Of a stretch of DNA of 34,006 nucleotides, positions 129 to 28,089 are shown in pieces. The position numbers and the translations under genes are program-made. Within the stretch, counting starts at the first letter, position 1. Each line of letters opens with the position of its first letter. Source of the stretch: Candidatus Poseidoniales archaeon (lineage in GTDB: Archaea; Thermoplasmatota; Poseidoniia; Poseidoniales; Poseidoniaceae); assembly GCA_009887195.1 (NCBI GenBank), contig QXXX01000031.1:1-34006 (forward strand), read 5' to 3'. Below the pieces are notes generated by a model that had not been told where the DNA came from, made no database searches, and was given only the letters and a program-made list of their open reading frames with translations.

Positions 129-3100
129 TTATTTTTGGGAATTTAACCATTCATGGCCGTAATAATTCCACTGTTCCATTGACCAGCCGTCGGGGAGCCC
201 TGCTTCTGGTAATTTTGGCCCTTCGAGTAATTCATCGATAGATAGGTCTCCGTTGTCAACCGATGTAGGAGCGACCTGCAATGCCTGCTCAAAGACAAAG
301 CCAGGAGGAGGGGAGGCTGGTTTTCTATGAGTAGATTCTAAATTACTCTCACTGTCAAATGCATCATCCAATTCATCTCGTTGCCAGTCTTTAGCCTTTG
401 AAGAATTTTCACGACGTCTTGCAACGAGAACCAACAACAGAATCAGGATTAGCACCAAACCCACTTGTGCGATTGGGCTGGCTTCCTCACCTGCTAACAG
501 AGCACCGGCTTCTTGGACAATATTCCGATCTGCAGCGCCAACATTAATGATTAATATTGCTGAGCCAGGTTTTTCTGGATTTTCATCCCAGGCAATAGCT
601 TTAACGCTAACTTTACCTTCTTTCTTGAACATATGTTCAACCCTAGCCCCAGTTAGGTCTGCATCGTTATCTTTGACACCATCCCCGTTACTATCAAAAG
701 AGATGTCTAAATCCCAAACGTAATTTAAGTCGGCTATGTCATTGAGTGAATCAATAGTGGTTCTAGCATCCAAAACACACTCCTCATAGGCACGACAGTT
801 AACATTTTTAACTCTGACAATCGGTGGAATATTAACCACTTCAACAACTACAACTTCGCTTGTTGTCGCACTGTCATCATCGGTTACATGGTAAACCACT
901 GTGTGGGAACCACTTCTATTCCAAGCATAATTTAGCTCATCACCAACAATGTCACAGTCATCACTTGCTCCACCAACCCCATCACTGTCAATGCCAGGGT
1001 CAATGTCCCAGCACTTGACTAACGATGGGATGTCACTTGGTGTATCTGTAGAGTTGCCGGTTATGGTAATTGATTGGCCCTCAGCAATTGGCAGTATGCT
1101 ATTGAGTGGTTGAACTACTGGAGGTACATTTCTAATGTTGACCCAGCGTTCATTAGTGGTGCTTTTAGCACCATCATCATCTGTTACATCCAAGCGAATA
1201 GTGTGGAGGCCAGAGGTGGTCCAACTCATGTCAAATTGAGTGACTCTGCCGGTTAGGAAATAAATCAAGGAACTCTGTTGGTCATCAGGCCACCAAGTAT
1301 GAGCTAATTGGTCGATATCATCGACAGAATCCTCGGCTTGGCCTTTGATAGTGACGAGTTGGTCCTCATCTAATTGCCATATTTGCTGTTCATCAGAGGC
1401 GATTATACCTGCTCGGTCGTATAGGTTGATTATCGTACTATAAGGTGCTATGTTAGTGAATAGAATGTCGATAGTTGCTTCGGTTTGCGCACTATCGTCG
1501 TCAACGCCGACTGCTTTGAATGAATGATATCCTTCTGTGGCGGCAGTAGTTGTACAAGTTTTGGTGTAGTAGCCTTCCATACACTGAGCATCGGGCCAGA
1601 ATACATCAACAACTCCTGGGAATGGGTCTTCTGAATCTGAATCATTAGAAAATGCGTAAAGGGTGATTGGGTGTTCAACCCTTGCCTCATTTCTCATGCT
1701 TCTAATTTCCAATTTCGGAGCACGATTACTGATGTTGGCATACAGGATTCCCTCAACCTCATCACGTTCTTCATCAACCACAGTAACAGAGATTGGATAG
1801 TTGCCATCATCAGTCCAAGTCCAATTGGTCTGGCAACTTTGGGAAATTACCTTCATGTAAGCCCATGAACGTGAACCATCATCATAAGGGATCTCAAAGA
1901 TACATGAAACACTGCCACCATCATCGTCATAACTCCCACTGGCATTGATGAACACTTCTTCTAAGGTTAAGGAGTCTTCATTGTTCAGTACCGGTGTTGG
2001 CAGACGGCCAACAAATAGGCTAATTATCGCATAATCATTGTCGGGGTTGGCATCAGCAGAATTAATTTCATCGGGGTCTGATTCCCAAGCGATTGGTACT
2101 TGTCCAACAGGCTGATTGTCAGGTACACTCCAGGTGAAGTTAGTTTTGTAAATCTCATAGGTTGAAAGTGAAGGTACTGGCAGATTGAAATCGTTACCTG
2201 ATGGTGGATAAATTCTCAAATCAGTCGGTAAACTAGCCGATATACCATTATTTTGAATTGCCACTTCGATAATTAGTTGGTCACCTGGTAAGACGTTATA
2301 CCCTGACAAGGTATTGAGTTCTTTTTCAACGCCGTCTCGACTTCTAGTAATCACTGCACGTTCAGCGTCGGCGAATAAATCTAACACCACAAGGTTGTCA
2401 TCAAGAGTTATGGTTTTGGTGCCGACCAGATTGCTTCCATCAGTTGTTCTAGCAACCAAACCGTGACTTGCCCAGTCAATGGAAGTGGTTGATCCGTCCT
2501 CGGCATTGCCGATATTCATAGTCGTCCAAGCGCTACCGTTAGCAGCAGTAGTTAGTGCTTGAATCTCTCCAGTTGCTTCATTACGGATTTCTAAGGCAAC
2601 ACCGGCGGGATTAGACTGGCAGCCACTGGCAGAAGTGGCATTGACCCACAAATCAATAGTCGTATCCAAAGCAGTCACGTCGTTTACTGTTGAGATTTGT
2701 AAACAATCATCCCTAACTCCGGGATTATTGTAGATGTTAACTCCTGAGGAGTCTTTTGGAATATACTCTTTCAATCTAAAATCAATAGTCAACCCAACAT
2801 CATCATCAGAATGCTTCCAAGCAAAATTTCGGGCTGCTGGACAATACCATGAATATCCTTCTTCATCTCCAGCAGAGTTGAATGAGGTGATTTCATACGA
2901 ATCATCACAGCCACCATAATTGATTGTCTGGCCGTATTGATTGATTGGTTTGCCGACAGTAGTCACCTCATATGTGGTACTGTTAGTGTCGGAAGATGGC
3001 GGCGGGAATGGCGTGATATAATCACTAGACCCCGACCATTGCGAGCCAGAAGTCACTGTAGTTGTCCATCGTTCGCCAGACCGCAGAGGAAAGTCATAGT

Positions 3101-3656
3101 TCTCACTTGGTGGGGAATATGTGCTGGAAATCGTGATATCACCAACTGTTTGTTTGAGGAAACTAATCCCACTGGGAGTGAATTCAATAAACAAATCTAA
3201 GTCATTACGCAATGATGCTAAATCACTGACTCGCAGGACCTCAGTTTGAGTAAATACAATTTCTGCAGTACCGGTAAAACTGTCAAGAGAAACTCCAGAT
3301 TTATCAAAATTGGCAGAGGTTCTCACAGTGTAAACCAAGGTCGGTACGCCGCCAACATTTTCTTCAGTAATCGATAACACTTCGGTAATTGAATCACCAT
3401 AGATTTCCCCGACCGTTGCCGATACCCCCGAGTCGACAACAAGTTGAGTGGGATCAAAAGTCCCAGCATATTTCCACTTGTCGCCAACACGCCATACAGG
3501 TACATCGACTGCACTATTTGTTGACTTGCTAGACTGGAATATTTCGTTGTCTAATTCAAGAGTTTCATTGGGGGCTTCATAGGTCAAGGTGGTTGAAATA
3601 AGCATTATTAGGACCAATGCGGCTGCTTTGAAACCTTGCCCATTTGAGCCCCGCAT
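129..3656 (-). CDS. Large surface protein: signal peptide, CARDB-like and PKD/Ig-like repeats, C-terminal TM, Trp-rich tail
   Basis: No enzymatic domain is recognised; it looks like a cell-surface structural or adhesive protein. The track start at 3701 is a TTG; I prefer the ATG at 3656, which puts a clean signal peptide (MRGSNGQGFKAAALVLIMLI) at the N-terminus and gives 1175 aa. The middle has a CARDB-like segment (around residues 440-560), then about four PKD/Ig-like repeats with motifs such as VTVVDEERDE, LDVTDDDGAKS and YHVTDDDSATT. Asp-rich runs such as DSDGVGGASDDCD and DSNGDGVKDNDAD look like calcium-binding loops. One helix at about 1060-1080 (VGLVLILILLLVLVARRR) is followed by Arg, so the last 95 residues should be cytosolic. 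They end in the aromatic motif DGWSMEQWNYYGHEWL. The gene lies downstream of tbp on the same strand. Secretion and anchoring are well supported; the function is not known. Confidence 0.85.
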   Translation of the reverse strand: MRGSNGQGFKAAALVLIMLISTTLTYEAPNETLELDNEIFQSSKSTNSAVDVPVWRVGDKWKYAGTFDPTQLVVDSGVSATVGEIYGDSITEVLSITEENVGGVPTLVYTVRTSANFDKSGVSLDSFTGTAEIVFTQTEVLRVSDLASLRNDLDLFIEFTPSGISFLKQTVGDITISSTYSPPSENYDFPLRSGERWTTTVTSGSQWSGSSDYITPFPPPSSDTNSTTYEVTTVGKPINQYGQTINYGGCDDSYEITSFNSAGDEEGYSWYCPAARNFAWKHSDDDVGLTIDFRLKEYIPKDSSGVNIYNNPGVRDDCLQISTVNDVTALDTTIDLWVNATSASGCQSNPAGVALEIRNEATGEIQALTTAANGSAWTTMNIGNAEDGSTTSIDWASHGLVARTTDGSNLVGTKTITLDDNLVVLDLFADAERAVITRSRDGVEKELNTLSGYNVLPGDQLIIEVAIQNNGISASLPTDLRIYPPSGNDFNLPVPSLSTYEIYKTNFTWSVPDNQPVGQVPIAWESDPDEINSADANPDNDYAIISLFVGRLPTPVLNNEDSLTLEEVFINASGSYDDDGGSVSCIFEIPYDDGSRSWAYMKVISQSCQTNWTWTDDGNYPISVTVVDEERDEVEGILYANISNRAPKLEIRSMRNEARVEHPITLYAFSNDSDSEDPFPGVVDVFWPDAQCMEGYYTKTCTTTAATEGYHSFKAVGVDDDSAQTEATIDILFTNIAPYSTIINLYDRAGIIASDEQQIWQLDEDQLVTIKGQAEDSVDDIDQLAHTWWPDDQQSSLIYFLTGRVTQFDMSWTTSGLHTIRLDVTDDDGAKSTTNERWVNIRNVPPVVQPLNSILPIAEGQSITITGNSTDTPSDIPSLVKCWDIDPGIDSDGVGGASDDCDIVGDELNYAWNRSGSHTVVYHVTDDDSATTSEVVVVEVVNIPPIVRVKNVNCRAYEECVLDARTTIDSLNDIADLNYVWDLDISFDSNGDGVKDNDADLTGARVEHMFKKEGKVSVKAIAWDENPEKPGSAILIINVGAADRNIVQEAGALLAGEEASPIAQVGLVLILILLLVLVARRRENSSKAKDWQRDELDDAFDSESNLESTHRKPASPPPGFVFEQALQVAPTSVDNGDLSIDELLEGPKLPEAGLPDGWSMEQWNYYGHEWLNSQK

Positions 3657-3722
3657 GGGTAAACCACGCTGCACATAGGAAATGAACGCTTCTCCTGCCA
3701 AGGGGCGGAAGGTTCAGTTGTT

Positions 3723-10698: not shown

Positions 10699-13644
10699 TT
10701 ATTTCTTCTTACCAGGCGGTTTAAGATCAGGTAATACCGGGACGAATTGTTTAGGTTCGTGCTCTTCCATTACGTTGAGGAATTCATCAAGACTGATTAC
10801 TCCATCTCCATTAGCATCAAAGGTTTCTAGCATTGCGTCAATATCTGAAACTTTGACAGAATCTTTGAGTAGCGTGTTAACCGCAGTTCTAATCTCTCTC
10901 CTTGAGACATAGCCATCGTCGGTTTGGTCAATCGCGGTAAATAGTCTAACAGCTGATAATCCAGACGACTTCATGGCACTAGCAACTTTATCCTTGATAT
11001 CAATGGATTTTGCATCACTAGACTCATTCTCAGTTTCTTCAGTTTCTAGCATGGCGGTTTCATTGAGTTCATCATCATCCCATATCTTGTCAACAACTGA
11101 ATTCTGCGAGGTTAATAGCTCATCATCATCACTAGTTTTACTGATTACATATAATCCGAACATTAGCGCAACTACGATAATTAGTAAAATCAATTTCAAT
11201 TGATTCTTAGTGCCTTCATCAGCCTCGGCGTCATCGGCAAAATCATCTTCAGGTAAGTCGGTAAACATGTCATCCTGATCATCGGTATTATTCTCATCAG
11301 TAGGGCCAGGCAAGGTGGTAGTGTCACCAGTGTTATCGGTGCTGCCGCTATTATCGCCAGTGTTGTCATTATTGTTATCGGTATTACCACCGTTGTTATT
11401 GCCGGAATTATCATCACCAGGTAATACAACATTGACGTTTGTTCTATCGCCATTTACCATCTCAACGGTGTAATAGTCATCATATAGTTTGGTCATGTCA
11501 ATGTGGTAATTGGCATGAGTAGACCGGTTAATTACGTCAAAATAACGTGCATCACCAGAAGTAAAAATTGGATCTAGTGTCATATTCTTCAAGTGAGAAA
11601 CATCGTCACGGTAATCACCGTCAAAAGTTGAATTTAGCCAAGCATTGATTTCACTATCAGTCATATCACTGAATTCATTCCAGTTTTCTTTCATGTCATT
11701 AAATTCGTGGCGCATTGCCATTGCGAGTCCCGCTTCGATTTCCGCAAAGGTTTGACTGCCATCAACTTCAGTCATTGATGTTACATCAACCGCTTTTTGA
11801 AAATCATGGCCATTGACGTATTCCCAGTCATCACCTTGTAATTGCTGCATCAAATCGATGTCGCCAAATACCGCTTTACCTTGCACAACAGTTAGTGCAA
11901 CATCCGCATCAATTGCCTCGATTAAGTTACGATATGGGTCTTCATGGAAGGTGTCTATCACGACTAAATCAGCAAATAAGTCTGCTTTAACTCGACCAAC
12001 GAAAGGCGTCCACCCTGTAGCATCAGCCGGGTTTGAGGTGACCATTTCTACCAGCTCATAGTTGCTGAAGTGTCCGTTCATGTTGTTACTATTCCACAGG
12101 TCAGCGACCTTCAGTTCATGGAAGTTGTTTTTTGAACCACTAGGTCCCCAATCAGGCGAGATGGAGATGCTAACTCCTGCTTGGTCAGCAGCGACCACAT
12201 CAGTAGTGTCGCCGTACAAGAGAAGATTAGATAGTGGCGACCAAACCAGTTCAGAGCCAACGCTGGCCATCTTACTAAACTGTGAGGAATCAAGCGCAGT
12301 GCCGTGGATGACAACGGTTTCATCCATGATCAAACCCTTATCCCAAAGCGCATCGAATTCTGCTTTGCTGGATGAATCGACACCTTCTGCAAGATGAACA
12401 AACCAAGCATTGAGGGTGCCAGATTCACTTTGGCTGATTAGGTGGCTACCAGTATAATCACTATCAGCAGCACCGCAAACAGCACATGTTGAGATTCCGT
12501 CTTGACCGAAGTTGTATAATTCAACATTTCGTGAAAGTATGCTGTCCCATGCTTGAGTACCAGAACTTGGTGAGCCTTGCATTGCTGTTACGCCACCTGA
12601 AACCGCTTGGACTTCAGCGTACTTCATCTGTTCACTTGCCATGTCCCAGCGGTAATTAGATTGGATATTGGTCTTCATCCAAGTGATACTTGGACCATAA
12701 TCCCAATTATTACCCCATTGGTACCTGTTGGTGTAACCGCCTTCTTCGGATTGTTGTGCATCACTCAGATGCACATCAAAGTCCCAAAGCGGGATGTGGT
12801 TGTAATGTACGTGATTATGTAAATCAATTAGACCAGGATAGATTGTCCCATCAGTATTGACAATTGGTACATCAGAGAAATCTACTCCTGCCGGTGGGTT
12901 TGCATTTGACGCCCAAACACCAGTGATTTTGCCATCTCGAATCATCACATTACCGTCATTGATGACGTTAGTTTCGCCGTCCATAGTAACGACTCGTCCT
13001 TTGAGTAAGAATGCTCTAGAGGAATCAGTATTGCTTAATTTGTAACACTTGACGATGTTATCAGGTACAGTATAGTCACCAGAAAAGTCAGCAGCTCTGC
13101 CCGGAGTCGGGTCATCTTTAGTCAGTACGCCATTTTCTTCAATATATGACTGACCATAACTAGAGTCTCCAGCCGGGAATGACATACTATCTACAATAGT
13201 TGAGGAAGTATCGCTAATGGATACAGTCTCGCCGTCAAAATAGCTTAGGTCAAGGTCAGAGTCAGCACGGAATACAACGATTCGCGCATCAGCATTTAGC
13301 ATTGTATCGTAAGCCAACTGACACGGAGGACTACCGCTAGTAGTTGACAAAATCCAGCTGGAGATATCTTCTGCCGAATCTCCAGAGTTCCAAATTTCAA
13401 TGAATTGGTCGCTATATTTGCCATAATCTTGGTCGCCGTTCCAATCTACTGCCCCGTAAAGGTTAGTACTATTTTCGTTAGAAACTAGATTATTTGGACT
13501 GATAAATAATTCCGAAATAACGATGTCAGCAGCCCGACCAGAAGCATTACTTTCACTGTTTTCTTCAAGGTTGTCAGTAGCATAAGTCCAAGGGCTTAGA
13601 ACCATGAGCAGAAGGATTGTAGAGGCAATGAGCATCCGTCGCAT
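10699..13644 (-). CDS. Anchored surface amidohydrolase: lamin-tail domain, amidohydrolase, TM, EF-hand pair
   Basis: A 981-aa mosaic. Residues 1-22 are a signal peptide (MRRMLIASTILLLMVLSPW). About 38-182 is a lamin-tail-like domain (IVISELFISP ... DQFIEIWNSGDSAEDISSW). About 210-600 is a metal-dependent amidohydrolase of the deaminase/imidazolonepropionase type. Its ligands appear complete: His276 and His278 in LHNHVH, a His-x-x-Glu in VHLAEG, His in VIHGTAL, and Asp in ISPDWGPS. An Asn/Gly/Thr/Asp-rich linker leads to one membrane helix (about 816-837, LKLILLIIVVALMFGLYVIS). After it come two canonical EF-hand loops, DQTDDGYVSRRE and DANGDGVISLDE, and a basic end (PPGKKK). The likely topology is amidohydrolase outside and EF-hands inside. 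The substrate is unknown; cyclic amides, nucleobases or peptides are possible. Its promoter is probably shared with divergent trxA. Confidence 0.88.
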   Translation of the reverse strand: MRRMLIASTILLLMVLSPWTYATDNLEENSESNASGRAADIVISELFISPNNLVSNENSTNLYGAVDWNGDQDYGKYSDQFIEIWNSGDSAEDISSWILSTTSGSPPCQLAYDTMLNADARIVVFRADSDLDLSYFDGETVSISDTSSTIVDSMSFPAGDSSYGQSYIEENGVLTKDDPTPGRAADFSGDYTVPDNIVKCYKLSNTDSSRAFLLKGRVVTMDGETNVINDGNVMIRDGKITGVWASNANPPAGVDFSDVPIVNTDGTIYPGLIDLHNHVHYNHIPLWDFDVHLSDAQQSEEGGYTNRYQWGNNWDYGPSITWMKTNIQSNYRWDMASEQMKYAEVQAVSGGVTAMQGSPSSGTQAWDSILSRNVELYNFGQDGISTCAVCGAADSDYTGSHLISQSESGTLNAWFVHLAEGVDSSSKAEFDALWDKGLIMDETVVIHGTALDSSQFSKMASVGSELVWSPLSNLLLYGDTTDVVAADQAGVSISISPDWGPSGSKNNFHELKVADLWNSNNMNGHFSNYELVEMVTSNPADATGWTPFVGRVKADLFADLVVIDTFHEDPYRNLIEAIDADVALTVVQGKAVFGDIDLMQQLQGDDWEYVNGHDFQKAVDVTSMTEVDGSQTFAEIEAGLAMAMRHEFNDMKENWNEFSDMTDSEINAWLNSTFDGDYRDDVSHLKNMTLDPIFTSGDARYFDVINRSTHANYHIDMTKLYDDYYTVEMVNGDRTNVNVVLPGDDNSGNNNGGNTDNNNDNTGDNSGSTDNTGDTTTLPGPTDENNTDDQDDMFTDLPEDDFADDAEADEGTKNQLKLILLIIVVALMFGLYVISKTSDDDELLTSQNSVVDKIWDDDELNETAMLETEETENESSDAKSIDIKDKVASAMKSSGLSAVRLFTAIDQTDDGYVSRREIRTAVNTLLKDSVKVSDIDAMLETFDANGDGVISLDEFLNVMEEHEPKQFVPVLPDLKPPGKKK
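11311..11418 (-). repeat. Low-complexity Asn/Gly/Asp/Thr linker within the amidohydrolase gene
   Basis: This stretch encodes a degenerate run such as GNNNGGNTDNNNDNTGDNSG followed by more D, T and N. It reads as an extended hydrophilic stalk between the extracellular enzyme and the membrane helix. The DNA is built from irregular GTTATC/GTTGTT-like units and is a likely site of length variation between strains. It is not a CRISPR array. Confidence 0.6.
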
Positions 13645-22749: not shown

Positions 22750-22893
22750 GATGTTGCGAAATCGGTTTTTCTCTTGAACCTCTCCCTTAGAACCAAACAT
22801 GAGAGGGAAATTAACGCCTATATTGGTCTTTTTTTCATTCTGGAAATTATTTTTGAGGGTATGTTTCAAGTCCTTACAGGTCTACGGGGGTGC
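22750..22893. promoter_or_regulatory. Divergent promoter region between ileS and the 1731-aa surface protein
   Basis: At 144 nt this is the largest gap in the window. On the minus strand CCAATATAGG (22826-22817) is a plausible TATA box for ileS, implying a leader of about 45 nt before the ATG at 22749. On the plus strand AAATTATTTTT (about 22844-22854) could serve the surface-protein gene with a leader of under 25 nt. I see no T-box-like or other structured leader, but I cannot fold it. Confidence 0.4.
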
Positions 22894-25800
22894 ATGTCCG
22901 CAGTGACCACGTGGCGCAGTGCACTCTTTTTGGCGATTTTAATGGCTATAATTGGGCCATTACAGATGACCGGTAATTTGTCGGCATCTTCGGTAGAAAT
23001 AGATTCGCTAAAAGATTCTAAAACAATCAGTCATTCAAGTATCGGAAACGCAGAATTTCTTGGGCTTTTGAGCGATAATGTTGCTAACAAAGCCTTCACC
23101 GTGGATGTGCCAAGTGACTCACCAATCACAGATTTGCAATTAACCGTCGAGCCATCGGCAATGCAAACTCATTATGGCTTCAACTGGCAAGGCGATATTT
23201 CCTGGTCAAATTCTGACGCTTCAAAAAACGGAACAGTTGTTGAAGGAACATCGCTAACCGGGTCTACTGCAGGAACACTGTGGGACTTTAATTCGGGACT
23301 CCAAGGATGGACCGTTTCAGACCCAACCTTTGTTAGTAGATGGACAACTGCCTGTGGATTTAACGGAACTTCAGGGGGCTCAATAAAGACTCAGGCGAAC
23401 TTTAACGCGCCCCATCATGCAACTTCTCCAGTAGTGAATTTAGCTGGAGCCCCAAGTATGCCACTAACTGCTTGGATTTTACAGGGCTCATCGACGTTTT
23501 CTGGTGCAGGCTGCGGTGAAGAACCTGATAGTGGTGAAGACTTACAAATTCAATATGCCGATACCAACCGAAATTGGGTGACTTTGAACACCTGGCTGGG
23601 CTCTACTGCTGGTGGTACTGCACAACAATGGAGTACTAATTTACCTGCTGCAGCCTTACACGCCAATAGCCAGATTAGAATCACTCAAATTAGCGGTAGT
23701 GGCAGCGGAGCAACATGTTGTGATTTTTGGTTCGTTGATGATGTTAATTTAGCATCACCGCCTGAATCTCATTGGATTAGTCCAACCATAGGTTGGGGTA
23801 ATGGGGCAACCCAGCCAGTGTCTAGAAGCACATATGCACCACTTCACCTAGATCTAGATATTCCGTCAGGTGCCTTCTTGAATTGGACTATCTTAGATGA
23901 TGCTGGAAACGAAATAATGGGCGCTCATGGTAGCAATGATGTGACAATTCCACTTAACATGGTGGACCATGAAATGTACCCTCTAGTACGCTTGAAACTA
24001 GAATTTAGAGGTTCTCCTTCAGGGGCAGGAATTCCGTATGTACATTCCATAAGCGGTGACGGTCAAATCATGACTTCGTTTAGAGGTGGATTAGCAGATC
24101 TAGGTTGGGATCAAGGATGCATGCAAGGAGGTGCCGTGACGTTTAGTAAGGGTGCCGTGGCAACAGTAGATTGTAATTTAACCTCGCCATGGATGATTGC
24201 ATCATCACCAACAAAGGTGATTTCTGGCAGCTCAGATATTACTAATGGCCAGTTGCAAATTCGCTATGACTCATTTGATAACTGGACAAATGTTTCGGCA
24301 ACAACTTTCACCGAATCGTCGGGGGATACAATTTATCGTTACCAATTTAGGATTATTCACGATGGAAGTAATACTAGCCAATGGAGCAGCAAGATGCTAT
24401 CGTGGACTCTGCTTGGGGGAAAACATCCAGCCCAGCCGGCAATAGATTTCAACGAGGATGGGTTTACTGAATGGGGTGGTAGCGACGACCGTGTAGGCTC
24501 ATGGGGTTGGCAAGACCGCTTTGAAAATGGTGCAGACAGGATTTCTGTGAATCCGGGAATATCTGGGACAGCATCAACTACTGCTTGGATGCCTCGAGAT
24601 GGGGCAGAGAGTTTCTCAGTTGGTGTATTTGCTGAAACAGGAGTGTTGACAGGATTATACATTAGAGTAGGTAGCCAATTGATTGCTAACTATTCCTATG
24701 ATTCAGTTGATAGTGCATATGTAACATTAAACGAATCGCAACTCTATGCGCTAAGTTACGCCGCTTCCACCGCCTCTAGTGTTGGATTTTTAGGAGCCAA
24801 TTTCGTCGAGGTTGATTTTGAAGTAACTGGCTCAGGTGGGATGAAAATGGCAGGATTGTCGATACCATATTCAATATCGATGAGTATAGATTCAAACCAA
24901 CAATCACCAATGGTTTTGGGCATAAATGACGCAAGGTCATCACTATCAACAGTCGGTGGACAACACCAAATTCCTATTCCGTTTATTGCTGATTCCGCAG
25001 GCGGTCTCCTGGTAACTTTAGATGGAGTAAACTATTCTTCAGATGTTGAGATAGTTTCTACCTATATGGAAGATGAAGTCGAAGTTTTGACTCCTAGTCA
25101 ACAATGGCACACAATGCATACATCGTTCAAAGTAACCTCCTCTACTGCCGGACTAGTTCGTCTTGATGTAGTGGGCAGCAACCACCACGCAACTTGGTTA
25201 ATTCCAACCGGCGGCGGCAGCCCTGTTGGTCAAGGGGAAAGCGAATTTATTGAATTACATCCAACTAATTGGTTAGATTTTACCCAAAACGGCGACGCTG
25301 TTGATGTGGCGGTCAAATACCGTATCGAGCCTGGATGGGATGATGAAAATTATGTGACTGCATCAACAAGGCTAGTACTTGCTAACGGTGTTGTTTCTAT
25401 TCCCGCATCCCACTCATGGGGTAGTCTCAATGGTGCTACTAAGGCACTAGAAAATGATTTAGAAATCAAATCGGTAACTTTCATTACTGACCTTGGAGAA
25501 TTACCTGCAGATGAATATTATTTGCCAGCAGGACAAGAAATCGATATTTCTATCGATGTCGGATTTGAAGGTGTTAACAGTATAGATTCATTTGCCCCTA
25601 GTGACGCTATAGTGAGCTTGTACCACGGATCATCTGAAATTGCTAATACCACTTCTTTGGATGATGATACATGGAATTTGACCGATGTTGTACCATTTAC
25701 CAACGGTGTGTTGGATTGGAAGATCGAAGTAAGCCCGCTAACTGGCGCTGGTGTTACTGAAGATGCCTTGTTTGAACGGTCATTCTTTGCCGATTCGGTT

Positions 25801-28089
25801 TCCCCATCGGTTTACTGGTCAAGCGTTGCAGCATACGATCATCGCGTCCCTTCCTCGAGCCAAACAATCCAAGTTCAAATCACCGATCAACCAGTATTAC
25901 CTTCCAACATTGAAGCAATGGTTTGGCGTGAGTGGGTTAACGATTATGACATGAACGGCCAACCAAGTCCAGATGAATATTCATCCTTTTCTTCAGTACT
26001 ACTGCCCAATGATCTCACTGCATTTGTTGGGCAATACACAATTTTGCTGGATGATAGTGGTGGTGCAATTGGCGATAAAGTAGCAGTATATTTGACTGGT
26101 AACGATGCCGCAGGCCATCCATTAGAGGATAATGGTACTGGTGAGGAAGGCGATCATTTGTTCATGTATCAACTGAAAGCAGACGGTCCTCCAACCATAC
26201 CAACAGCCGCTTTTTCATGGGATGGAGGCAGACAAACCTGGCTTCACCCAATGATTGAGTACGAATTTGACGTCATGATGTCAGAACCGAATGGTGGTTC
26301 GGATTTGTCAAATGTCGAAGTACAACTCGCATCTCAACAAAACAGTGACCCATTGCCAATATCTTGGGACTTCATTACCGGAAATTGTACTACGACAAGT
26401 CCTCATTTAGTGATTGATGATTGTGATATGATTGGCCAAAATGGACTTGCTGGGCCGTATGAAGTTGATTTGACATTGAATGTTAAGTTCCATTTATTGT
26501 GGACTATTCCAGATTTGGGTGATACTAAACGTGAACCCAAATTAATCGTTATGGACCGTGCTGGTAACACTGACCAACAAGCATTCCCAACCCTACGTTG
26601 GCGATCTTCTGGCGATATGTACATACCAGATGAAACAATTCAATTATTCATCAATCAAGGTACAGTAGTAGATGATGGGGCAAGAATTGCCCCTAGCAGT
26701 TCATTTGAAGTGTCAGGTGATGTGTTATTTAGTGAAACCAACACTCGTCCTGATTTTGATTGTCCTATCACCGTGATGTTTGATGGTGTTTCTTATCCAG
26801 TAACTGCACTTGATGGTGCTTGGACAGCAGTCGTGACTGCGTCGGAAAATTCGGGCAAGAAGGCCTTGACTTGGGGTGTTGATTGTTACTCAGGCCAAGG
26901 TGATGACGTAACTGATGAGTCAGATAATCGGTGGATATTAGTCGATGGGACAGGTCCAAACCCAGTTGAAGTAATCAATCCTAGACCTAATACAATTCTC
27001 GATACCGATGTGTATGAAGTAAGAGTAGCAATCGATGAAGAAGGGGGTCTAGACATAGATTCCTTGCAACTTGAGTGGTGGGTCGAGGATGCACTTACTG
27101 GAGATAGACTGTCTACAGGTTTCGAGGCAATGACTCTTGAAGGAACCGATATTTCAGGTACTCAGTTAGAGGTCTATGGAGAAATCGACCTGTCTGGAAT
27201 TACCGACACTATGATTCAAAACCGATTAATCTTATTCATCAAAATAAACGGCAGAGATCTTGCCGATAATTCAATTCAAGGAATGAATGGGGCGCCTGCA
27301 GGTAGCGAAATTGCTCAATGGGACTTAGAATGGTTAAGACCAGAATTTAACATTGGTCCCTTAGATATCTCATATACTCGATTAATAATTGAAGTTGGTC
27401 AATCCACTTCGGTTCAAGCATTAGTGGACAATACAGGGTCACTAGATGGGACAGTTGACGCTACTGTCTATGTAGTCAAACTAAATGGTACAAAGGAAGT
27501 TCTACAACGCCCAAGCATTGATATTCCTGCACAAGGAAAAGGCCTGATTACAGTTGACTGGGCTCCTACCTCACAAGGTATACAGTGGATTGAGGTCGAA
27601 CTTGATAACGGTCAAACTTCCAAAGGCCCAACAGTAGATGTAAGGCCTGCTAGAGATCAAGGGTTTGTCGAGAATCTATTTGGTGATGTCAATCCAGTCA
27701 TCGGTTCAATTGTCGCACTTATCTTCGTTTCAATCATCGCTACAGGATTACTGTGGGCGCGTAAAGCAACCAGAGGCAAAGGCGCTCGTTCAGAATATGA
27801 TTGGGATGAATATTCCTCAGAAATGGAAGAAGATGACTATGATGACTATGAAGATGAAGATGCTGTCGATTATGTAGCAGCAGAATCATCAGCAAAGAGT
27901 AAAGAAATCCAACCTGCATCTTCACTTGCTGCTGCTTCAGCAGCACTTGGCGTGGCACAATCTACTCCATCAGCAGAAGCTGAAACAGATTGGGTAATGG
28001 GTGCTGACGGCTACTGGTGGTATCATGACAAAGCTACTAATGAGTGGTGGTACAAGGATGAGAATGGCGATATTGTCCAATTCAATTGA
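22894..28089 (+). CDS. Very large surface protein: signal peptide, jelly-roll and CARDB-like regions, C-terminal TM, acidic and Trp-rich tail
   Basis: No enzyme domain is recognised in this 1731-aa protein. I start at the ATG at 22894, where a signal peptide follows (MSAVTTWRSALFLAILMAII); the track start at 22774 lacks one. Near residues 125-290 is a jelly-roll-like segment (LWDFNSGLQGWTV ... CCDFWFVDDVNLA) resembling MAM/reelin-type domains. Long beta-rich repeats follow, and a CARDB-like domain lies near 1490-1580. One helix at about 1600-1622 (PVIGSIVALIFVSIIATGLL) is followed by basic residues, so the last 110 residues should be cytosolic. That tail has a strongly acidic stretch (EMEEDDYDDYEDEDAVDY), an Ala/Ser linker, and an aromatic end (DGYWWYHDKATNEWWYKDENG). 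Adhesion, sensing or cell-envelope structure is inferred only from architecture. Its stop overlaps the TTG start of nadE. Confidence 0.85.
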   Translation: MSAVTTWRSALFLAILMAIIGPLQMTGNLSASSVEIDSLKDSKTISHSSIGNAEFLGLLSDNVANKAFTVDVPSDSPITDLQLTVEPSAMQTHYGFNWQGDISWSNSDASKNGTVVEGTSLTGSTAGTLWDFNSGLQGWTVSDPTFVSRWTTACGFNGTSGGSIKTQANFNAPHHATSPVVNLAGAPSMPLTAWILQGSSTFSGAGCGEEPDSGEDLQIQYADTNRNWVTLNTWLGSTAGGTAQQWSTNLPAAALHANSQIRITQISGSGSGATCCDFWFVDDVNLASPPESHWISPTIGWGNGATQPVSRSTYAPLHLDLDIPSGAFLNWTILDDAGNEIMGAHGSNDVTIPLNMVDHEMYPLVRLKLEFRGSPSGAGIPYVHSISGDGQIMTSFRGGLADLGWDQGCMQGGAVTFSKGAVATVDCNLTSPWMIASSPTKVISGSSDITNGQLQIRYDSFDNWTNVSATTFTESSGDTIYRYQFRIIHDGSNTSQWSSKMLSWTLLGGKHPAQPAIDFNEDGFTEWGGSDDRVGSWGWQDRFENGADRISVNPGISGTASTTAWMPRDGAESFSVGVFAETGVLTGLYIRVGSQLIANYSYDSVDSAYVTLNESQLYALSYAASTASSVGFLGANFVEVDFEVTGSGGMKMAGLSIPYSISMSIDSNQQSPMVLGINDARSSLSTVGGQHQIPIPFIADSAGGLLVTLDGVNYSSDVEIVSTYMEDEVEVLTPSQQWHTMHTSFKVTSSTAGLVRLDVVGSNHHATWLIPTGGGSPVGQGESEFIELHPTNWLDFTQNGDAVDVAVKYRIEPGWDDENYVTASTRLVLANGVVSIPASHSWGSLNGATKALENDLEIKSVTFITDLGELPADEYYLPAGQEIDISIDVGFEGVNSIDSFAPSDAIVSLYHGSSEIANTTSLDDDTWNLTDVVPFTNGVLDWKIEVSPLTGAGVTEDALFERSFFADSVSPSVYWSSVAAYDHRVPSSSQTIQVQITDQPVLPSNIEAMVWREWVNDYDMNGQPSPDEYSSFSSVLLPNDLTAFVGQYTILLDDSGGAIGDKVAVYLTGNDAAGHPLEDNGTGEEGDHLFMYQLKADGPPTIPTAAFSWDGGRQTWLHPMIEYEFDVMMSEPNGGSDLSNVEVQLASQQNSDPLPISWDFITGNCTTTSPHLVIDDCDMIGQNGLAGPYEVDLTLNVKFHLLWTIPDLGDTKREPKLIVMDRAGNTDQQAFPTLRWRSSGDMYIPDETIQLFINQGTVVDDGARIAPSSSFEVSGDVLFSETNTRPDFDCPITVMFDGVSYPVTALDGAWTAVVTASENSGKKALTWGVDCYSGQGDDVTDESDNRWILVDGTGPNPVEVINPRPNTILDTDVYEVRVAIDEEGGLDIDSLQLEWWVEDALTGDRLSTGFEAMTLEGTDISGTQLEVYGEIDLSGITDTMIQNRLILFIKINGRDLADNSIQGMNGAPAGSEIAQWDLEWLRPEFNIGPLDISYTRLIIEVGQSTSVQALVDNTGSLDGTVDATVYVVKLNGTKEVLQRPSIDIPAQGKGLITVDWAPTSQGIQWIEVELDNGQTSKGPTVDVRPARDQGFVENLFGDVNPVIGSIVALIFVSIIATGLLWARKATRGKGARSEYDWDEYSSEMEEDDYDDYEDEDAVDYVAAESSAKSKEIQPASSLAAASAALGVAQSTPSAEAETDWVMGADGYWWYHDKATNEWWYKDENGDIVQFN

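What the first reader, a model, noticed from the sequence alone, without database searches (positions are those of the whole stretch)
10699..13644. Lamin-tail, amidohydrolase, membrane helix and EF-hand pair in one protein
Signal peptide, lamin-tail domain, an amidohydrolase with an apparently complete metal-ligand set, a flexible Asn-rich stalk, one membrane helix and two canonical EF-hand loops occur in one chain. The topology puts the enzyme outside and the calcium-binding pair inside, which suggests a transmembrane link between an external hydrolase and internal calcium. I know of no characterised protein with this order.
Basis: partly seen in the sequence, partly recalled or inferred. Interest (0 to 1): 0.65.

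Follow-up and report, generated by a model that had tools for sequence, protein, structure and literature searches.

The report
Surface amidohydrolase with calcium-binding inner tail
This gene of an uncultured ocean archaeon makes an enzyme anchored on the outside of the cell; in one young branch its inner end gained a conserved calcium-binding pair, one of several such pairs on the inner side of these cells' membranes, but whether calcium controls the enzyme is untested.

Summary
The 981-aa chain (10699-13644, minus strand; Ca. Poseidoniaceae, Marine Group II) has a signal peptide, a lamin-tail domain, a subtype-III (AtzA/MTA-deaminase-like) amidohydrolase with every active-site residue invariant in about 80 orthologues, a disordered stalk, one membrane helix and an EF-hand pair. 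Two corrections. First, only loop 2 is strictly canonical: loop 1 has Thr at ligand position 3 in all 18 members. Second, the EF pair is not part of the basic design. LTD, amidohydrolase and C-terminal anchor form a conserved order-wide family (LTD and amidohydrolase in 36 of 36 scanned, EF in 12). The EF pair entered once, in one clade, between a juxtamembrane E/D-K-[IM]-W-D-[DE] element and a C-terminal F-[VI]-P-x-[LP]-P motif that relatives without EF also keep. Its ligands are invariant and it is under strong purifying selection. Topology puts it inside, though charge in this clade is uninformative. Direct transmembrane allostery is unlikely, because a roughly 75-residue floppy stalk and a variable linker flank one helix. 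The most likely role is a cytosolic Ca2+ (or Mg2+) module governing tail docking. The wider context is more striking: EF pairs also sit in the A-type ATPase subunit I, a permease and other membrane proteins here.

The parts
10699..13644 (-). Whole gene: LTD - amidohydrolase - stalk - TM - EF pair, 981 aa
13579..13644 (-). Signal peptide, residues 1-22 (MRRMLIASTILLLMVLSPWTYA), cleavage site inferred
   Evidence: hydropathy script; an N-terminal hydrophobic segment in 60 of 68 non-fragment orthologues; cleavage site by eye
13075..13524 (-). Lamin-tail domain, about residues 41-190
   Evidence: PF00932 at 69-155, 25.8 bits (sub-cut-off); 36 of 36 orthologues match, best E=1.4e-22; beta-rich, pLDDT mostly about 75-86
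11845..13032 (-). Amidohydrolase domain, residues 205-600
   Evidence: PF01979/PF07969; Foldseek best hits 4f0r, AtzA, TrzN (models of low confidence)
12811..12819 (-). H276-x-H278 metal ligands
   Evidence: 79 of 79 rows with residues there
12385..12396 (-). H417-x-x-E420 (metal ligand and catalytic Glu)
   Evidence: 80 of 80 rows; aligned to HMAE of AtzA
12304..12306 (-). H447, catalytic His
   Evidence: 80 of 80 rows; aligned to AHC of AtzA
12151..12153 (-). D498, metal ligand
   Evidence: 80 of 80 rows; aligned to GTD of AtzA and 4f0r
11455..11844 (-). Conserved extension of unknown fold, residues 601-730
   Evidence: 82.5% mean identity within the EF clade; no Pfam match
11221..11454 (-). 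Asn/Asp/Gly-rich stalk, residues 731-808
   Evidence: sequence; pLDDT about 22-31
11137..11199 (-). Single membrane helix, about residues 816-836
   Evidence: hydropathy 2.86; helix 810-837 in the model; C-terminal TM in nearly all full-length orthologues
11065..11091 (-). Juxtamembrane DKIWDDDEL, residues 852-860
   Evidence: shared by the EF clade and its EF-less sister clade
10762..11004 (-). EF-hand pair domain, residues 881-961
   Evidence: PF13499 43.9 bits; helix-strand-helix pattern; dN/dS about 0.03-0.05 against 0.15-0.48 in the adjacent linker
10894..10929 (-). EF loop 1, residues 906-917, DQTDDGYVSRRE (Thr at position 3)
   Evidence: ligand positions 1,3,5,9,12 invariant in 18 of 18
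10783..10818 (-). EF loop 2, residues 943-954, DANGDGVISLDE (canonical)
   Evidence: ligand positions 1,3,5,9,12 invariant in 18 of 18
10714..10746 (-). C-terminal motif FVPVLPDLKPP, residues 967-977
   Evidence: F967, P969, P972 at least 90% conserved in 36 orthologues with and without EF hands; the strict DNA pattern hits only this gene in the 4 of 21 genomes where it occurs

Best explanation
It is a cell-surface enzyme of Marine Group II archaea. The signal peptide exports an LTD plus a metal-dependent subtype-III amidohydrolase, held outside the membrane on a long flexible stalk by one C-terminal helix. The enzyme hydrolyses (probably deaminates or de-amidates) a small extracellular substrate, identity unknown. 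On the inner face the short tail carries a conserved Pro-rich docking motif. In one clade an EF-hand pair was inserted just before that motif. The likely mechanism: cytosolic Ca2+ (or Mg2+) binding changes the pair's conformation or dimer state, and so changes how the tail motif docks to a cytosolic partner, affecting clustering, placement or turnover of the enzyme rather than its catalysis. Shown here: domains, active-site conservation, single gain, ligand conservation, purifying selection. Inferred: inside location (about 0.9), metal binding (about 0.8), hydrolase activity (about 0.85), regulation of docking (about 0.45).
For: LTD and amidohydrolase in 36 of 36 orthologues, EF in 12. All catalytic residues invariant and aligned to AtzA/4f0r; Foldseek agrees despite weak models. 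The EF label needs one change on the orthologue tree, SH-aLRT 99. Insertion lies between elements kept in the EF-less sister clade; synteny with cysS in almost all loci shows true orthologues. EF ligands 18 of 18, variation only at non-ligand positions 2, 4 and 7. dN/dS of EF far below the adjacent linker. Closest non-orthologous EF modules lie in a Poseidoniaceae zinc-ribbon/four-EF/two-TM protein, in its N-terminal part before the first TM, so presumably cytosolic. EF pairs also occur in cytosolic parts of the A-ATPase subunit I and a permease. PF01699 (Na_Ca_ex) exchangers in all 21 genomes searched.
Against: No experimental data at all. Structure models are poor (pLDDT about 50). The positive-inside rule is uninformative in the EF clade. 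Loop 1 has a weaker Thr at position 3. Most orthologues do without the EF pair. No partner of the tail motif is known, and PF01699 exchangers are widespread in prokaryotes (11 of 14 control genomes).
Confidence: 0.5

Rival explanations
1. Structural module: the EF pair is permanently filled with Mg2+ or Ca2+ and merely folds, dimerises or stabilises the tail; there is no signalling.
For: Thr at ligand position 3 of loop 1, invariant; a single late gain; no known partner; enzyme conserved without it.
Against: Strong conservation of the whole pair including surface residues (mean column identity 86%) and its place between two conserved tail elements suggest a more specific role.
Confidence: 0.3
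2. Direct transmembrane coupling as first proposed: internal calcium changes activity of the external amidohydrolase through the helix.
For: Enzyme and EF pair are in one chain on opposite sides.
Against: About 75 disordered residues outside (pLDDT 22-31), one helix, and a hypervariable linker inside (30% identity in the clade); the enzyme is conserved in EF-less orthologues.
Confidence: 0.06
3. Inverted or unusual topology: the EF pair faces sea water (about 10 mM Ca2+) and is a structural calcium site outside.
For: K/R flank charges do not favour either side in the EF clade (4 against 6 of 17); one orthologue (L167) has D-x-D-x-D-G repeats like thrombospondin type 3 in its outer stalk.
Against: Signal peptide and single C-terminal helix give C-in; EF-less orthologues show positive-inside 44 to 2; homologue L165 ends with KRKRKEKK; the closest EF modules precede the first TM of a zinc-ribbon protein.
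Confidence: 0.07
4. The EF-like tail is a neutral relic with no function.
For: Present in only one clade.
Against: Ligands invariant 18 of 18; dN/dS 0.03-0.05.
Confidence: 0.03

Closest known systems
Amidohydrolase superfamily subtype III (AtzA, TrzN, TM0936 / MTA-SAH deaminase 4f0r)
   Same: HxH, HxxE, H, D set; profile hits to 4f0r, 4dzh, AtzA, TM0936; Foldseek to the same set
   Different: About 15-19% identity in the structural alignments; exported and membrane-anchored; Asp sits in a P-D-W-G-P motif where the relatives have G-T-D; long conserved insertions and a 130-aa extension; LTD in front
Lamin-tail-domain surface proteins of prokaryotes
   Same: N-terminal LTD in an exported protein; the same genome has an exported protein of at least 1108 aa with repeated LTDs
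   Different: No report found of LTD joined to an amidohydrolase or EF hands
EF-hand pairs of the calmodulin superfamily (PF13499)
   Same: Helix-loop-helix pair, canonical loop 2, matches calmodulin at E about 1e-9
   Different: Thr at position 3 of loop 1; fused to the tail of a single-pass surface enzyme
Zinc-ribbon / four-EF / two-TM protein of Poseidoniaceae (L126, L206)
   Same: Its EF pairs are the closest non-orthologous matches to this module (E about 1e-12)
   Different: Not a hydrolase; EF pairs lie N-terminal to the membrane helices

Membership tests
Subtype-III amidohydrolase | HxH on strand 1 | tested here: met
   H276-N-H278, 79 of 79 rows
Subtype-III amidohydrolase | HxxE on strand 5 | tested here: met
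   H417-L-A-E420, 80 of 80; aligned to AtzA HMAE
Subtype-III amidohydrolase | catalytic His on strand 6 and metal Asp on strand 8 | tested here: met
   H447 and D498, 80 of 80; aligned to AtzA H/D with the same 51-residue spacing (AtzA residue roles from memory)
Subtype-III amidohydrolase | (beta/alpha)8 barrel plus beta-sandwich fold | tested here: inconclusive
   Foldseek top hits are all of this fold, but model confidence is low (pLDDT 49-50)
Subtype-III amidohydrolase | metal-dependent hydrolysis | not testable with these tools
   needs a purified enzyme
EF-hand pair (PF13499) | score above curated cut-off | tested here: met
   43.9 against 30 bits
EF-hand pair (PF13499) | two loops with the classical ligand pattern D-x-[DNS]-x-[DENSTG]-G...[DE] | tested here: inconclusive
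   loop 2 meets it; loop 1 has Thr at position 3 in 18 of 18
EF-hand pair (PF13499) | binds Ca2+ | not testable with these tools
   needs ITC or NMR
Lamin tail domain (PF00932) | score above curated cut-off of 34.3 bits | tested here: not met
   25.8 bits in this chain; 30.8 in the genome search. Orthologues match to E=1.4e-22 and 36 of 36 match, so it is filed as a divergent LTD at family level only
Type I membrane protein (N-out, C-in) | signal peptide, single stop-transfer helix, positive-inside | tested here: inconclusive
   first two met; positive-inside met in EF-less orthologues, uninformative in the EF clade

The most novel reading that the evidence does not exclude
In Poseidoniaceae, EF-hand modules have been added repeatedly to the cytosolic sides of membrane proteins (A-type ATPase subunit I, an amino-acid permease, other multi-TM proteins, and this surface amidohydrolase), forming a real cytosolic calcium-signalling layer in an archaeon; this protein is a calcium-gated inner-face dock for an outer-surface enzyme.
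Probability: 0.25. Interest if true: 0.8.

Novelty: new variant of a known kind. Interest (0 to 1): 0.45.

Why it matters
Calcium signalling through cytosolic EF hands is thought of as mainly eukaryotic. A very abundant ocean archaeal lineage carries about 2-17 EF-pair matches per genome, several on the inner face of membrane proteins. This gene, with its datable single insertion into an otherwise conserved surface enzyme, and the A-ATPase subunit I are clean, testable cases. It also defines an order-wide surface amidohydrolase family of unknown substrate.

Tried and rejected
AlphaFold2 on the full chain (A1, pLDDT 50) and on the enzyme domain alone (A2, pLDDT 49) gave low-confidence models, so no active-site geometry is claimed. 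The C-terminal motif as a genome-wide sorting signal: the strict DNA pattern hits only this gene, in 4 of 21 genomes, though a related tail (ENFVPNLPTGPPPKNG) ends a different LTD protein in G185 (L168). Substrate from neighbours: cysS is housekeeping and S15 peptidase, thioredoxin and a secreted 466-aa protein vary with lineage, so no pathway could be named. The peptidase-like amidohydrolase subgroup (Xaa-Pro dipeptidase, arginine carboxypeptidase) was considered; profile hits favour the deaminase/chlorohydrolase group and the ligands match subtype III, so I prefer that, without a substrate. LTD+amidohydrolase outside the Thermoplasmatota was not searched beyond the first genome-collection scan, which returned only Poseidoniales-type records.

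Full report
OBSERVATION. The ORF at 10699-13644 on the minus strand codes for 981 aa. Pfam places an amidohydrolase (52.3 bits, cut-off 25) and an EF-hand pair at 900-959 (43.9, cut-off 30), and a lamin-tail domain below its cut-off at 69-155 (25.8 against 34.3). Scanning 36 orthologues shows that the LTD is genuine at family level: 36 of 36 match, best E=1.4e-22; the amidohydrolase is in 36 of 36 and EF hands in 12. Hydropathy finds only an N-terminal segment (4-22) and one at 816-834. No dedicated topology predictor was available; this is a Kyte-Doolittle script.

ORGANISM. The window is a contig of a metagenome-assembled genome. Its closest named relatives are Candidatus Poseidoniaceae, Marine Group II; one member of the EF-bearing clade is titled MGIIa-L1 (L048).

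ENZYME. H276, H278, H417, E420, H447 and D498 are invariant in every row that covers them, 79-80 of 83. A profile of the domain finds 4f0r (MTA/SAH deaminase), 4dzh, AtzA and TM0936. In the AtzA alignment H417/E420 fall on HMAE, H447 on the His of AHC and D498 on the Asp of GTD, with the same 51-residue spacing between the last two (roles of the AtzA residues are from memory). Foldseek on both models returns the same families first. Both models are weak (pLDDT 50 and 49), so the fold is supported by sequence and only weakly by structure. In this family the Asp sits in P-D-W-G/S-P where the relatives have G-T-D; a homologue outside the order (L165) reads G-T-D-W-S-P, an intermediate. The substrate is unknown.

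TAIL. Reading the C-termini of all orthologues shows an ancestral plan: TM, then a short cytosolic tail, which in Poseidoniaceae ends in F-[VI]-P-x-[LP]-P-x. The window's clade has a tail of 137-156 residues after the TM, against mostly 3-62 elsewhere. The additional stretch is the EF pair, placed between [ED]-K-[IM]-W-D-[DE] (shared with the EF-less sister clade) and the terminal motif. On a tree of the ectodomains the EF label needs one change, SH-aLRT 99, and the outgroups lack it, so it is a single gain. Gene order around the locus is kept: cysS is adjacent in almost all loci long enough to show it, an S15 peptidase on the other side in Poseidoniaceae, a thioredoxin only in the window's genus. 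These are therefore orthologues changed in place.

IS THE EF PAIR FUNCTIONAL? In 18 sequences the ligand positions 1, 3, 5, 9 and 12 of both loops never vary; changes fall on positions 2, 4 and 7, including one Gly-to-Ala at loop-2 position 4. Loop 2 is canonical; loop 1 has Thr at position 3 throughout, which departs from the strict pattern and probably weakens binding. In the closest four sequences dN/dS is 0.027 for the EF domain against 0.148 for the linker before it; over the whole clade 0.05 against 0.48, with synonymous sites near saturation. The pair is kept by selection. The closest non-orthologous matches are EF pairs of a Poseidoniaceae protein with zinc ribbons, four EF loops and two TMs (E about 1e-12), lying before its first TM, a plausible donor by domain copying.

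TOPOLOGY. A signal peptide followed by a single C-terminal helix gives enzyme out, tail in. In 56 EF-less orthologues K+R are more frequent on the C-side in 44 and less in 2; in the 17 EF-bearing ones the counts are 4 and 6, uninformative. The homologue L165 ends with KRKRKEKK. I put inside at about 0.9.

MECHANISM. Direct mechanical coupling from EF pair to enzyme is unlikely: a roughly 75-residue disordered stalk (pLDDT 22-31), one helix, and a linker with 30% identity within the clade. A better-supported view is that the pair acts on its immediate neighbour, the conserved terminal motif, hence on docking to a cytosolic partner, clustering or turnover. The main rival is a constitutively metal-filled structural module. 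I cannot separate these computationally.

CONTEXT. Genomes of the order carry from 2 to 17 EF-pair matches; of 14 control genomes only Caulobacter rang. In the window's genome one pair is inserted in the A/V-type ATPase subunit I (V_ATPase_I 105.6 bits, EF pair at 341-396); full-length matches with the insert are found in most genomes of the genus, while G001, G007 and the other family have versions lacking it. The same stretch is 40-52% identical to a module in a different multi-TM protein. An amino-acid permease carries one at its C-terminus. PF01699 exchangers occur in all 21 genomes searched. PMC9258230 reported modules of lineage-specific families with calcium-binding domains in Poseidoniaceae and Thalassarchaeaceae and suggested signalling, without architectures. 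Searches for lamin-tail, EF-hand and Marine Group II / Poseidoniales papers found no description of this protein.

VERDICT. A real and well-conserved protein; a new variant of known domain kinds, not a new kind of system. The architecture as such has moderate interest; the repeated use of EF modules on the inner face of membrane proteins in this lineage is the more surprising point and is testable.

Noticed in passing
L145:857-3205 (G000:C55:19356-21704, own genome): A/V-type ATPase subunit I (PF01496, 105.6 bits) with an EF-hand pair inserted at about 341-396 in its N-terminal part; full-length matches in most same-genus genomes, insert lacking in G001, G007 and the other family.
   Followed up: partly
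L144:384-2567 and L129:512-2476: Multi-TM protein without a Pfam match for its membrane part; C-terminal EF pair 40-52% identical to the module in the ATPase subunit, in one case followed by a SAP-like tail. Looks like a shared, copied module.
   Followed up: partly
L109:1-1692, L127, L138: Amino-acid permease (PF13520) with a C-terminal EF pair in both families of the order.
   Followed up: no
window 157-188 (minus strand), end of the 1190-aa ORF 129-3701: Recurrent motif G-W-x-x-E-Q-W-x-x-Y-G near the C-terminus of a TM protein: 5-9 DNA-pattern hits per genome in the genus, 1-4 in the other family, none for the reversed control pattern. Function unknown.
   Followed up: partly
window 22774-28089, last about 35 residues: Large TM protein ending in a Trp-rich stretch GADGYWWYHDKATNEWWYKDENGDIVQFN, like a short WW-type repeat.
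   Followed up: no
L146, L147 (genus g13): Orthologues whose N-terminal LTD region matches the profile twice (tandem LTD).
   Followed up: no
L056 and L071, C-terminal tails: Thalassarchaeaceae orthologues whose tail has a Cys-rich C-x-C...C-x-C stretch, a different accessory tail from EF. These rows are 60-63% identical to the window while other members of that family are near 40-48%, possibly a transferred copy.
   Followed up: no
L167 (G185), stalk: Orthologue with many D-x-D-x-D-G repeats, resembling thrombospondin type 3 calcium repeats, in the outer stalk.
   Followed up: no
L168 (G185), 672 aa: Different LTD protein, without amidohydrolase, that ends in ENFVPNLPTGPPPKNG, close to this family's tail motif; the motif may be a shared inner-face docking signal.
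   Followed up: no
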